DNA from: Mugil cephalus
Lineage: Eukaryota > Chordata > Actinopteri > Mugiliformes > Mugilidae
Direction of reading: 5' to 3'
NCBI RefSeq assembly: GCF_022458985.1
Contig: NC_061771.1
Location: forward strand, 16,546,001-16,610,000
DNA: 64,000 bases
Position 1 is the first letter of the stretch; each line of letters begins with the position of its first letter. A program made the translations under genes and the position numbers. Shown piece by piece: positions 28,537 through 34,354 of the stretch. The notes under the pieces are model-generated. The model made no database searches and had not been told where the DNA came from. It saw nothing but the letters and a program-made list of their open reading frames with translations.

Positions 28537-28542
28537 TTTATT
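28537..28542 (-). terminator. AATAAA poly(A) signal overlapping the stop codon of the AIMP1-like gene
   Basis: On the minus strand the last codons ATC AAA TAA followed by AC create AATAAA over the stop codon. If used, the 3' UTR would be only about 20-30 nt. Use is not proven, and a signal further downstream may be used instead. Confidence 0.35.
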
Positions 28543-30461
28543 TGATTTCAGTGTCACTCATGGTTTGGGCTTTGCACACTCCTTTTCCAAACACTTCAAA
28601 GGCAGCTCCCCTGTAGGTTGCGACTCCTCGGCTGTCTGTGCGGAGGTCGGGCTGAACCTGCTCCCACACCTTCTTTTTGGGGTTCAGCTCTTTGTCTGGT
28701 TCACCTGTCAGTCAGAAAGTCAGTTTGAGAATCATCTCTGTAGCTTAACAAGCCTCATCATATCACATGCAGGTTTGTGATTGCGGGACTTTTCCTGTAT
28801 TGTGTTATATCCTCGCAAAGCTCCTCGCACATCAAAACCGTGAGCAGGATTACACTGCTGTTATAACCTTCTACAAACCCCTTCCATGAGATTATGGAAA
28901 CTGGTTACAGGGATTGGCTCCCTTTCAGTCCCGAGAGGTCAGTGAGGTTTTGTAGATAAGGCCTGCTCAGCGCGCAGTCGAATGCCTGATGAACGGCAGC
29001 GCTGCGAGCAGAGGCACGTTGACTGGTTGAGCGTGTACAAACCTCTTTTTCGATGGAGAATGTTTATCACGGTTAAGATAGCGATTTGCTTTAGGATGCA
29101 AAGAAGTCAGATGGTGATACCTGGAATTCCCTGGAGAGTAACTCTGTCCCCTGGTACTGCTCCGCTTGGAGGTTCAAGGATTTCCACCTTGTCTGCTGAG
29201 CTGGCGCACAGGAGCACAGCCTGGTTCTCCACTCCCCCCGTCTTAACTGGCTCCAGGTTACACAGCAAGACCACCATGCGATTTTGCATCTGCAAGAGGG
29301 TGAGGAGATTAAATAGACTTTAAGATTTTTTTTTTCAGGTTTTACAGCTTTTAGTGCAATGTTGTGCAAAGATGATTTCAGCCGGGACAAAAATTAAAAC
29401 ATTAACCTACACGTCTATAACACTGTATCTTGATAAGTGTCTAAATGATAAAGATTTGGTTGATTCTGGCTAAAATGCACATCTCATGTCTGTATATAAA
29501 TGCTTGTATATCTCGTGTAAATTCTTCTTCTTTACTACCTCATTCTTATTCTTCTTTTATTTTAAGATTATTTTATTTCATTTTATTTTTATTCCTATGG
29601 TCTGGTTCATACATGTTCTTTCTCATCTTGGGACTGTTGGACGAAACAATTTCCCTGCTGTGATCAATAAAGTGATCTTGTCGGTAGACTGTTTGTTTCC
29701 ACGATGAACCCCCTCAGTCTTATTAATAACACATTTCTGATGGACAGAACAACTAAAATCAGTGAATGGCCCTGAAAAGGTCCCCTGACTTGGAGGAGCG
29801 TGGAGACTGTCGTGCCAGCACATCAATGCTTCAGACTTATAAGTGACCCAAAGCTTTTCATTTAAAGCACTTCATATCCATCCACTTTAAACTGGCAAAT
29901 AAATAAAGACAGAGACACCATGCAGTATAGTATACATAAATGATTGTCCGTCTAATGGAATCACCTCTAAAGCTAATACAAAAATTACCTTTCTACTTTA
30001 CAACACCATCTTAACTGAAAGCTCCTGTAAACCCGATTATTGGCTCTAATCTACTTAAATCTGATGAGACGTTCAGTGACCTTCATAAGCACCAAACTGG
30101 CAGGAAAAACACTGTTAGTTTGAAGCAGCAAAGAAGCACATTATTCATTCATCTGAAACAGAATAGATCTGAAGGGACAGTATAATTATATTTCAAGTAA
30201 AAGTCCAGAAATCCGTACTCAGTTGATACAGGAGCATAATGCCATAGTGTACCTGGTCCACAGGTATGTGCGTGGCCAGTTCGCTGACCACTGTCCTCGG
30301 TGAAGCCTCTCCCACATCAACCTGCTCCACGTACAGGCCATCCGTGTCTGGAGGCTGCAGAACTGAAATTATACGTCCAACGCGCAGGTCCAGACGAGAA
30401 ACGTCCGCTTTGGCGTCGTCTTGGCTGCACGAGTCCTGCTTCTTTGACACTTTTTGCCCTC
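28538..30461 (-). CDS. AIMP1/EMAPII-type tRNA-binding domain, three C-terminal exons
   Basis: Exons in transcript order: 30253-30461, 29121-29289, 28538-28704, with GT-AG junctions and continuous phase (1, 0, 1). They encode about 181 aa closely resembling the C-terminal half of AIMP1 (p43). AIMP1 is a scaffold of the multi-tRNA-synthetase complex whose C-terminus is the EMAPII OB-fold domain. Diagnostic stretches are VSRLDLRVGRIIS, YVEQVDVGEASPRTVVS, MVVLLCNLEPVK, EPDKELNPKKKVWEQ and FGKGVCKAQTMS. These match AIMP1 better than the tyrosyl-tRNA synthetase C-domain. The usual AIMP1 N-terminal coiled-coil exons were not found upstream in this window. The only same-strand candidate 5' exon is the Tc1 helix-turn-helix ORF at 31214-31586, whose donor phase (1) fits the acceptor at 30461. 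The gene is therefore either a diverged aimp1 paralog with an unrecognised 5' end or a fusion with transposase sequence. Confidence 0.85.
28705..29120. other. AIMP1-like last intron, nothing recognised
   Basis: 416 bp intron with ordinary GT and AG ends on the minus strand. No repeat or other gene was recognised. Confidence 0.6.
29290..30252. other. AIMP1-like middle intron, nothing recognised
   Basis: 963 bp AT-rich intron. It contains a T-rich tract at about 29560-29600 but no coding or RNA signal. Confidence 0.6.
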
Positions 30462-31160
30462 CTGGCAATAGAAGAAAGATGAACACGAGTTAATAATAAA
30501 TCATTTTTGGCAAAAAAAAAAAAAAACAAAAAAAAACAACCAACAGCATTAAACAACAGATGTTGCAGATGTTTTTGCACAGAGGAACAGAGGACATAAA
30601 GATAAATAAAAACCTTAAATAAGTGCAAAAATGCATAATGCTCTGTGAATTATATAAATTTGCCATAATGCACATCAGGATATAAAGGATAAAGAGATAC
30701 TGTAAGATCTTGCACATGGTGTAGAGGTTAATTTTGCTAATTGTTTAATAAAAACACACATATATGTGCGTGTATGTAACACGTATATTTTAAAAATACT
30801 AAGATACGTTTTTCAGTGGGAATCATTAAATGCTGACAGACTGACATTATAGCAGCATAGTGGTGATAGGGGCCAAAGAACATTTGACTTGATGGGGCCC
30901 CACAAAAGCTATTTATTTACTGTTATCACGTGGAGCAAAAATGAAACTTATTCACTATGAAAGTAAGAGTGTATGGTGTGATTTGAATTAGCTTAAATAT
31001 GAGCAAACAGGTAAACATCACCGATGCTCTTGCAGCTGAATGGATCAAATTATCGCAGCCAGGGGACGAAATCCCGTGAGCAACTCGTCTAAAGGCGACT
31101 GCTCAGCTACCACGTGTTAGAATAATGCAGGTGTAAAATTTGTGCATGGTCAAAGGCACC

Positions 31161-31586
31161 CTACGCCCATTTGTGGCCGTTTAACCTCTGGCTCCCGGAC
31201 CTCCGGGACGCACCTTTAGGCTTGCTGTACGAGGACACCCGACCGCGGAAACCCATCTCATGGAGCTCCCTGCGGACAGTGGTGGAGCTCACGCTGGCCC
31301 CGGAGGCGGTCTGAAACTCGCTGGTCAGAGCCTGTATGGAGGGCAAACACTTCCCCAGCGCCACCCTCTCCAGCACCTGGCGGTCCTCCTCCTTCAGCTT
31401 GTGCGGTCGGCCGCTCCGGGGCAGAGCCGTCGTTATTCCTCCACGTTTCCACTTCAGAATCACGGCGCTCACAGTGGAGCGAGGGAGGTTCAAGAGGGCG
31501 GAAATCTCGCGGACTGACTTTTTGCACAGGTGACATCCCACGACGGTGCCACGCTGAAAGTCACTGAGCTCCTCGCTGCGCCCCAT
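31161..31586 (-). CDS. Tc1-type transposase N-terminal DNA-binding ORF, possible exapted exon
   Basis: Intact 141-codon ORF starting MGRSEELSDFQRGTVVGCHL. It resembles the N-terminal half of a fish Tc1 transposase. First helix-turn-helix lies at about residues 10-50 (REISALLNLPRSTVSAVI), a GRPR-like linker at 57-63 (RSGRPHK), and a second helix-turn-helix at about 66-115 (VSSTTVRRELHEMGFRGR). The catalytic DDE half is absent. Base composition is strikingly GC- and CpG-rich compared with the flanks and with the Tc1 copy at 31942. After K124 there is a splice donor AAAG|GTGCGT (exon end 31214) in phase 1. That phase is compatible with the AIMP1-like acceptor at 30461. Joining 31214-31586 to those three exons gives 918 nt with no internal stop, or 305 aa. 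A TATA-like box lies 116 bp upstream of the ATG. Alternatively it is a truncated element whose frame survives by chance. Confidence 0.55.
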   Translation of the reverse strand: MGRSEELSDFQRGTVVGCHLCKKSVREISALLNLPRSTVSAVILKWKRGGITTALPRSGRPHKLKEEDRQVLERVALGKCLPSIQALTSEFQTASGASVSSTTVRRELHEMGFRGRVSSYSKPKGASRRSGSQRLNGHKWA

Positions 31587-31701
31587 TCTCTCAGCGGCGT
31601 TTGGAGAGAGCTTCAGCTTTGATTTCTCACCTCAACCCCCTCCTCCCACCAGCCTCCTCCATGGACCTAGTCCCCGCTCTCCTTCTTCTATGGTTTGTGG
31701 C

Positions 31702-31709
31702 TTTAAATA
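31702..31709 (-). promoter_or_regulatory. TATA-like box upstream of the Tc1-HTH ORF
   Basis: TATTTAAA on the minus strand lies 116 bp before the ATG at 31586, a plausible core-promoter distance. A short upstream ORF of 11 codons (starts near 31663, MEEAGGRRGLR) lies in the putative leader. The function is inferred. Confidence 0.35.
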
Positions 31710-31770
31710 CTAGTTCAAATGCTAACTTGTACTTTACCGCCGCTCTCAGGTTGAACGGCGAACAACAACC

Positions 31771-31937: not shown

Positions 31938-33549
<1,612 letters not shown>

Positions 33550-33789
33550 TATATATACACAAAGTACACTACAAAGTACTAAAAGTTTTTACTACTGGCT
33601 GCAGGTACAACAATACATTTCATTGTGCATTGTACTTTGTATAACTGGTGTGATGACACTTCATGAGATTTACAGCTCATTCCACCTTTCAGTGGAAACA
33701 TGTACAAAGCACAATTCTACTATATCCATATTTCAGAAATATCAGTAAAAAAAAAATGTAATGGAAATGCACATTTGTCGCATCTCCAG
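33550..33789. other. Spacer between Tc1 element and coiled-coil exon
   Basis: 240 bp of AT-rich sequence. It ends in a possible splice acceptor, TCGCATCTCCAG, at 33789. No exon was recognised. Confidence 0.4.
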
Positions 33790-34354
33790 ATGTGCCTGCC
33801 ACATCTCCAGCCCAAGGAAACAAGGCAAAAGAAGAGATGGCTCTTCTTCATCAGGAGCTCAGCAAGAAGACGGAGATGCATGAAAATGTTTCTCTGCAGA
33901 GTGAACAGCTAGAAGAGACTCTCCAGACAGAAAAGAGAAAAAGGAAGGAAGCAGAGATCTGTCTTCAACAACAAGCAGAGGAGACCACTAAAGTTAAAGC
34001 TGCACTGACTCTCATGCAGACTCAGATGGACGAGCAACAACGCCAGTGGGAGGAGGAGAAACTCCACTACCTTTCTGAGAACATAGTGATGACAGCAACT
34101 ATAACGGCTGCAGCTACCAAGACGAAGGAGGACCTGGAAAACCAGAAAAGACAGAGGGACCAGGAAAAGGCCGACATCCAGCAGCGTATACAATCAACGA
34201 ACAAGGCCATCAAGAAGACGGTGGAGGAGAAAACTATAGAAAAGTGTTAATGGACAGACAGCAGCATCTAGAACAGCAGATTGAGGAGGGACCGAAAAAA
34301 GTGAGGAAGAAATCTCTGAAGGAACAATTCCTCAACTTTTTCAGAAGAACTTGA
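33790..34354 (+). pseudogene. Orphan coiled-coil terminal exon with one frameshift
   Basis: After an acceptor-like CATCTCCAG, a frame encodes about 152 aa of charged heptad-like sequence rich in E, K and Q (for example EEMALLHQELSKKTEMHEN and LQQQAEETTKVKAALTLMQ). It stops at 34248-34250. Around 34200-34240 a one-base shift opens a second frame continuing NYRKVLMDRQQHLEQQIEE and ending KEQFLNFFRRT before TGA at 34352-34354. The continuation has the same coiled-coil character, so a single-base deletion or a read error is likely. AATAAA follows at 34644. No upstream exons were found, and the Tc1 element lies 240 bp upstream. I do not recognise the family. It could be the 3' exon of a decayed gene or a live gene with an assembly error. 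Confidence 0.5.

What the first reader, a model, noticed from the sequence alone, without database searches (positions are those of the whole stretch)
28538..31586. Possible host-transposase fusion: Tc1 helix-turn-helix exon joined to an AIMP1/EMAPII tRNA-binding domain
Seen in sequence: an intact 124-codon Tc1 DNA-binding segment (31214-31586, minus) ends at a donor AAAG|GTGCGT in phase 1. The next same-strand acceptor with coding sequence is 30461, entering the EMAPII-domain exons in exactly the matching phase. Joining the four exons gives 918 nt without a stop (305 aa). The usual AIMP1 N-terminal coiled-coil exon is not found in the window, and a TATA-like box lies upstream of the transposase-derived ATG. 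Established: transposase DNA-binding domains are known to be captured as exons of host genes, as in SETMAR-type fusions. Inference: a DNA-binding tail on a tRNA/cytokine-type OB-fold protein would be a new architecture. Phase match alone has a one-in-three chance.
Basis: partly seen in the sequence, partly recalled or inferred. Interest (0 to 1): 0.85.

Follow-up and report, generated by a model that had tools for sequence, protein, structure and literature searches.

The report
Transposase DNA-binder fused to AIMP1 duplicate
In this fish-like genome, an extra copy of a gene that normally helps handle transfer RNA seems to have swapped its front end for the DNA-gripping part of a jumping gene, and changed its RNA-gripping residues, which suggests a new kind of DNA-binding protein; no transcript has been seen yet.

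Summary
Four minus-strand exons (31586-31214, 30461-30253, 29289-29121, 28704-28538) join to 918 nt, 305 aa, without a stop.

The 3' part is a third AIMP1 copy: 74% identical to a canonical aimp1 1 Mb away, dN/dS 0.20, without the coiled coil, which the genome search finds only at the other two aimp1 loci. The 5' exon is a Tc1 DNA-binding domain with no second copy found (best long match 55% aa).

The exon does not look like a decaying transposon. Twenty-nine relatives have median dN/dS 1.2 against their majority; the exon has pS 0.84 but pN 0.27, no stop, and only its coding part is recognisable. Constraint before and after capture cannot be fully separated.

New here: at all seven positions that hold the tRNA 3' end in the related Trbp111, the window differs from aimp1, including all three residues that aimp1 shares with Trbp111 (p about 4e-5). 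I read it as an AIMP1 duplicate that lost its complex anchor and probably tRNA binding and gained a DNA-binding domain.

The junction rests on phase, donor strength and lack of another start; there is no transcript and no second species. Known kind, new partner as far as searched.

The parts
31703..31709 (-). TATA-like box TATTTAA, 123 nt upstream of the ATG
   Evidence: a pattern match only
31214..31586 (-). Exon 1: ATG and Tc1-type bipartite DNA-binding domain, 124 codons plus 1 nt, donor AAAG|GTGCGT
31425..31586 (-). First helix-turn-helix (PAI-like), residues 1-54; residues 1-52 are 75% identical to the Tc1 family majority
31257..31391 (-). Second helix-turn-helix (RED-like), residues 66-110; residues 67-119 are 42% identical to the majority
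30462..31213 (-). Intron 1 (752 nt); no recognisable transposase catalytic remnant
30253..30461 (-). Exon 2: start of the AIMP1/EMAPII OB fold
30334..30366 (-). L12-loop stretch of the OB fold (bounds set by me), 7 of 11 residues changed against aimp1a
29121..29289 (-). Exon 3: second part of the OB fold
29212..29259 (-). L45-loop stretch (bounds set by me), 8 of 16 residues changed; places equivalent to Trbp111 K73, R75, I77, F78, S82 and M85 all differ from aimp1a
28538..28704 (-). Exon 4: C-terminal EMAPII part and stop codon

Best explanation
A host-transposase fusion gene. SHOWN: a duplicate of aimp1 (dS 0.67 from aimp1a) kept the EMAPII exons under purifying selection, has no coiled-coil exons that a search finds, and lies between GRAM/TBC exons and a PA-domain exon on the same strand. 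752 nt upstream, in matching phase behind a strong donor, lies the DNA-binding half of a Tc1 transposase, open in frame, constrained at the amino-acid level, and without recognisable remains of the rest of its element. INFERRED: the exon is spliced to the EMAPII exons as the first coding exon. The protein cannot join the multisynthetase complex as AIMP1 does (no coiled coil) and binds tRNA 3' ends poorly or not at all. It binds DNA through the two helix-turn-helix units, perhaps at terminal inverted repeats of the source Tc1 family or at sites descended from them, with the OB fold as a structural or protein-contact module, as in SETMAR- and KRABINER-like fusions.
For: Joined frame 918 nt, 305 aa. 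Best other protein match L008, 55% over 119 residues; the next nine (L009-L017) carry 1-4 stops. By DNA none of 38 other matches covers more than 128 of 373 bases. Against the family majority, 29 copies have dN/dS 0.24-5.3, median 1.22, and 26 of 28 (L009-L036) carry a stop in the fragment; the exon has pS 0.84, pN 0.27, identity 71/75/31% at codon positions 1/2/3. At 38 fourfold sites of unchanged residues only 11 match. 0 of 2000 neutral simulations reach its 58% aa identity (maximum 42%); 65 of 2000 keep the frame. The family element is about 1.2 kb; in the window similarity covers the ORF start only, and the 17 residues past the donor match no better than shuffles. EMAPII part dN/dS 0.20. 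Coiled coil found only at the two other aimp1 loci. Donor among the best 6 of 841. Two tri-helical units predicted. tRNA-contact places 7 of 7 changed, p 4e-5 within the OB region.
Against: No transcript and no second species; scans of genome contigs and viral contigs found no relative, but those are collections of prokaryote genomes and viral contigs. Part of the constraint on exon 1 could date from its time in an active transposon of a family now absent here. Only 150 of 2419 candidates were scored, short matches reach 72% over about 50 residues there, and the DNA search skips very common words. Third positions are not uniformly saturated: 47-53% identical in codons 1-30, 47% in 61-75. The donor matrix is recalled, and the gene's own other donors score only about 0, so weaker first exons cannot be excluded (31 phase-1 donors behind an ATG score >= -0.1, 8 of them >= 90 nt). 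Four of the seven tRNA places already differ between Trbp111 and aimp1a. The structure model has 5 rows, mean pLDDT 74, pTM 0.39; no Foldseek hit passes E 0.001, and the best ones superpose badly (rmsd 7-9 A, TM below 0.4).
Confidence: 0.72

Rival explanations
1. Two separate genes: a domesticated stand-alone Tc1 DNA-binding protein (141 aa from the same ATG to the stop 17 codons past the donor) and an AIMP1-like gene with an unseen first exon.
For: The HTH frame reads on 17 codons past the donor to a stop. Weak alternative phase-1 donors exist. Selection on the HTH does not itself prove splicing. In one search, 4 of 149 other alignments run past residue 125 (to 126, 127, 131 and 140).
Against: Most long protein matches end at residues 119-125, next to a strong phase-1 donor; DNA matches end 33 nt before it, and the 17 residues past it match seven relatives no better than shuffles do (171-261 of 500 as good). 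The EMAPII exons lie 752 nt downstream on the same strand and lack a start. No native AIMP1 5' exon was found near.
Confidence: 0.15
2. The HTH is the remnant of a recent insertion from a divergent, active or horizontally acquired Tc1 family; its constraint predates insertion, and it sits by chance before an AIMP1 duplicate.
For: Tc1 elements are common here; one of another family lies directly upstream at about 31960-33530. Saturation against the L008 family could reflect divergence of a separate family.
Against: No second copy of such a family was found. No TIR or catalytic part beside it, although a neutral remnant would be seen up to about 0.5 substitutions per site (27 of 30 simulations); at 0.33 per site an unselected exon keeps its frame in 15% of simulations. 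Deletion of the 3' part could evade this. The AIMP1 part is not decaying (dN/dS 0.20).
Confidence: 0.1
3. A fusion that is transcribed but has no function: chimeric splicing of a duplicated gene on its way to loss.
For: No expression or phenotype data; tRNA-contact residues are changed.
Against: Both halves show pN well below pS and usable splice sites; outside the two tRNA loops the OB and C-terminal part differ from aimp1a at only 22 of 135 residues.
Confidence: 0.06

Closest known systems
SETMAR (Hsmar1 transposase fused to a SET domain) and KRABINER
   Same: Host domain joined to a transposase DNA-binding domain; SETMAR's DNA-binding domain (7s03) is the eighth Foldseek hit, E 0.03. KRABINER and the class were seen only as cited in passages of PMC12062965; the rest is recalled.
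   Different: Here the partner is an AIMP1/EMAPII OB fold, the HTH is at the N-terminus, and no catalytic domain remains.
Caenorhabditis F-box A2 genes with an N-terminal Tc1/mariner HTH (PMC12062965, abstract and passages)
   Same: An N-terminal Tc1/mariner HTH coded by one exon, no transposon sequence consistently flanking it, purifying selection on the HTH.
   Different: Partner is an F-box; there the HTH was reported not to act in transcriptional regulation, so DNA binding cannot be taken for granted here.
AIMP1 (p43, EMAPII precursor)
   Same: Best solved relative of exons 2-4 (4r3z, E 6e-74); same exon phase at the EMAPII entry as this genome's aimp1.
   Different: No coiled coil found, and the places for the tRNA 3' end are changed.

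Membership tests
Host-transposase fusion gene | Transposase-derived domain intact in frame and constrained | tested here: met
   pN 0.27 against pS 0.84, no stop; relatives near neutral. Constraint before and after capture not separated.
Host-transposase fusion gene | Rest of the transposon lost or inactive at the locus | tested here: met
   No catalytic remnant, flank similarity or TIR found
Host-transposase fusion gene | One transcript joins transposase exon and host exons | not testable with these tools
   Only phase, donor strength and lack of another start support it
Host-transposase fusion gene | Conserved at the same place in related species | not testable with these tools
   No related animal genome held; two searches found nothing
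AIMP1 | EMAPII OB fold and C-terminal domain | tested here: met
   4r3z E 6e-74 over 180 residues
AIMP1 | N-terminal coiled coil that anchors to the synthetase complex | tested here: not met
   Found only at C2:15.57 Mb and C1:29.16 Mb
EMAPII-like tRNA 3'-end binding OB fold | Contact residues of the L12 and L45 loops (Trbp111 K33, K73, R75, I77, F78, S82, M85) | tested here: not met
   None of the seven Trbp111 residues is present; aimp1a keeps three (K73, S82, M85). 7 of 7 places differ from aimp1a. Mapped by motif spacing and the aligned range, not by a printed alignment.
Tc1/mariner transposase DNA-binding domain | Two tri-helical HTH units | tested here: met
   HTH_SB 47.4 bits; six helices from H9-20 to H101-110; top fold Tc3 1u78, E 0.002, weak superposition
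Tc1/mariner transposase (enzyme) | DDE catalytic domain | tested here: not met
   None seen in 30462-31213

The most novel reading that the evidence does not exclude
An AIMP1 duplicate has been turned from a tRNA-handling subunit of the synthetase complex into a DNA-binding protein: complex anchor replaced by a Tc1 transposase paired-like domain, and tRNA pocket dismantled by changes at its contact places, giving a new OB-fold regulator that may bind transposon ends.
Probability: 0.5. Interest if true: 0.75.

Novelty: new member of a known kind. Interest (0 to 1): 0.62.

Why it matters
A survey of tetrapods reported that transposon DNA-binding domains tend to fuse to host domains of gene regulation (Cosby et al. 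2021, known to me only as summarised in PMC12062965). Here the partner would be a translation factor, and the partner itself seems to have given up its RNA function, so the two halves may have evolved together. With two full aimp1 genes kept in the same genome, the case is open to direct tests: does it bind DNA, has it lost tRNA, is it nuclear.

Tried and rejected
Chance phase match: rejected as a sufficient account, given the selection pattern and the donor. Retained AIMP1 5' exons: searched in the window and genome, none found near. Decaying Tc1 copy: rejected by codon-position pattern and simulations. Catalytic remnant in the intron: none seen. Similarity past the donor: four of 149 protein alignments run past residue 125, so I tested the 17 residues against seven relatives; shuffles do as well in 171-261 of 500. 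The first codon alignment of relatives failed for minus-strand loci and was redone with both strands; its failed rows were not used. The promoter scan models bacterial promoters and says nothing here. Of three family loci searched for inverted repeats, only L009 showed long ones. Literature: 'AIMP1' with 'transposase' gave 2 papers, one mention of each word apiece in the listing, neither opened; other searches. No listing there showed an AIMP1-transposase fusion; only top rows are listed, subscription papers and preprints are not held, and Cosby et al. 2021 was not held. Seen of papers: passages only of PMC12062965 (with abstract), PMC10027918, PMC4284789, PMC11286949 and PMC11224427. The number of family TIR sites in the genome could not be counted.

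Full report
Observation. The four exons are present as described, with boundaries 31586-31214, 30461-30253, 29289-29121 and 28704-28538 on the minus strand. Joined they give 918 nt, 305 aa and a stop. The HTH exon ends in phase 1 and the EMAPII exon is entered in that phase, the same phase as the corresponding exon of this genome's canonical aimp1. Pfam finds HTH_SB in exon 1 and tRNA_bind in the EMAPII part.

The host part. The window lies at C2:16.546-16.610 Mb of a 635-Mb, 24-contig genome. Besides the window, three loci carry this domain: a full aimp1 at C2:15.57 Mb, a second, diverged aimp1 at C1:29.16 Mb, and a C14 gene that I read, from memory of its sequence, as tyrosyl-tRNA synthetase. 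Both other aimp1 genes keep coiled-coil sequence. A genome search with the coiled coil finds three matches, all at those two loci. The window's EMAPII part is 74% identical to aimp1a with dS 0.67, dN 0.14 and dN/dS 0.20, and 49% identical to the C1 gene. So it is most simply a later duplicate of aimp1a, under constraint, without its 5' exons. Neighbours by Pfam are GRAM and TBC exons on the 3' side, a PA domain on the 5' side, and NOA36 beyond. I recall these as tbc1d9, rnf150 and znf330, neighbours on human chromosome 4q31; that naming is from memory.

The transposase part. The genome search with the HTH peptide scored 150 of 2419 candidates. The best other match is L008, 55% identical over 119 residues; the next nine carry 1 to 4 stops; short matches reach 72% over about 50 residues. 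The DNA search gave 38 other matches, none over more than 128 of 373 bases and all within the first 140; it skips very common words. No second copy of the whole exon was found.

Selection. I aligned the 119-codon fragment of 29 family copies (L008 and the 28 loci L009-L036, the best-scoring ones; none dropped) and compared each with their site majority. They have dN/dS from 0.24 to 5.3, median 1.22; 26 of the 28 loci carry at least one stop, and the other two carry shifts of frame. They behave as near-neutral relics. The window exon has pS 0.84 (beyond the correction), pN 0.27 and codon-position identities of 0.71, 0.75 and 0.31. Of 38 fourfold sites in unchanged residues, 11 match. In 2000 neutral simulations to the same nucleotide difference none reached the observed amino-acid identity of 0.58 (maximum 0.42), and 65 kept an open frame. 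The first HTH unit is most constrained (75% identity, pN 0.17), the second less (42%, pN 0.38). Against uniform saturation: third positions are 47-53% identical over codons 1-30 and 47% over 61-75.

What is left of the element. Family copies share sequence from about 137 nt before the ATG over about 1.2 kb. L009 has 36-nt inverted repeats at its ends; L008 and L012 showed none so long. In the window, DNA similarity begins 7 to 21 nt before the ATG and ends 33 nt before the donor (all 55 hits looked at). Most long protein matches end at residues 119-125, four of 149 run further, and the 17 residues past the donor match seven relatives no better than shuffles. No TIR-like site lies in the window with up to 3 mismatches. 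A neutral catalytic remnant would have been seen in 30 of 30 simulations at 0.4 substitutions per site, 27 of 30 at 0.5, 18 of 30 at 0.6 and 3 of 30 at 0.8. So the coding exon has outlived the rest of the element, unless the rest was deleted. This is the main reason to place part of the selection after capture, and it is not proof.

The junction. The donor scores 5.06 on a recalled vertebrate matrix; 6 of 841 GT sites in 12.5 kb reach that, itself included. It closes the longest phase-1 ATG frame among 31 with a donor score of at least -0.1 (8 of them 90 nt or more), and the only one of 90 nt or more with a score of at least 4; one donor of 5.71 ends a frame of 13 nt. The gene's own later donors score about 0, so donor score alone cannot exclude the weaker ones. 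The EMAPII frame has no ATG upstream in exon 2.

A changed tRNA site. A 2024 structure of Trbp111 with tRNA shows that this OB class holds the 3' CA end with residues that include K33, K73, R75, I77, F78, S82 and M85 (PMC11286949, passages). At the seven equivalent places the window differs from aimp1a seven times of seven (S to G, K to E, A to V, M to T, R to G, S to N, M to V), against 46 of 180 overall (hypergeometric p 5e-5; within the OB region 27 of 105, p 4e-5). Four of these places already differ between Trbp111 and aimp1a; the three shared ones (K73, S82, M85) are all changed in the window. The two loop stretches, whose bounds I set, hold 15 changes in 27 residues, the rest from the OB start 22 in 135. 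The residue list comes from the paper, but I made the comparison after noticing the region. I infer that tRNA binding is weakened or lost while the fold is kept.

Structure. AlphaFold2 on exon 1 (5 rows, mean pLDDT 74, pTM 0.39) gives six helices in two groups of three. Foldseek ranks the Tc3 bipartite domain first (E 0.002), then Pax6, Mos1 and, after Pax5, SETMAR (ranks 1 to 8). None passes E 0.001, and superposition is poor (rmsd 7-9 A, TM below 0.4). By sequence, the best solved match is Sleeping Beauty's first subdomain (E 1e-4).

Mechanism. I think it most likely that the gene makes a nuclear DNA-binding protein. AIMP1 uses its N-terminal helical domain to assemble the synthetase complex (PMC11286949, passage); this copy has none that I can find, its tRNA pocket is changed, and its N-terminus is a kept transposase DNA-binding domain. 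Likely targets are ends of the source Tc1 family or sites descended from them. The splice, expression, location and target are all inferred. The F-box A2 case warns that a captured Tc1 HTH can serve protein contact instead.

Novelty. Host-transposase fusion is a known kind. An AIMP1/EMAPII partner was not seen in the listings, which cover open-licence papers only and show top rows only.

Noticed in passing
L008 1501-2487 (C3:24244783 onward): A 328-codon Tc1-like frame without a stop, although its nearest relatives carry stops and shifts; it reads WSGES where I recall WSDES in Tc1, so the first catalytic Asp seems lost. A late relic or a second domesticated gene.
   Followed up: partly
window 31960-33530, +: A Tc1 element of another family, with its transposase frame in two pieces, lies directly upstream of the fusion's putative promoter.
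   Followed up: no
window 33762-34247, +: A 162-codon coiled-coil-like frame without a Pfam match at E 0.001, between the Tc1 and the PA-domain exon.
   Followed up: partly
L039 (C1:29.16 Mb): The second aimp1 is itself strongly diverged: 53% identical to aimp1a over the EMAPII part.
   Followed up: no
window 31001-31750: GC about 0.59 and CpG o/e 0.7-0.8 around exon 1, against 0.42 and 0.54 for the window: island-like, though much of it is the exon itself.
   Followed up: partly
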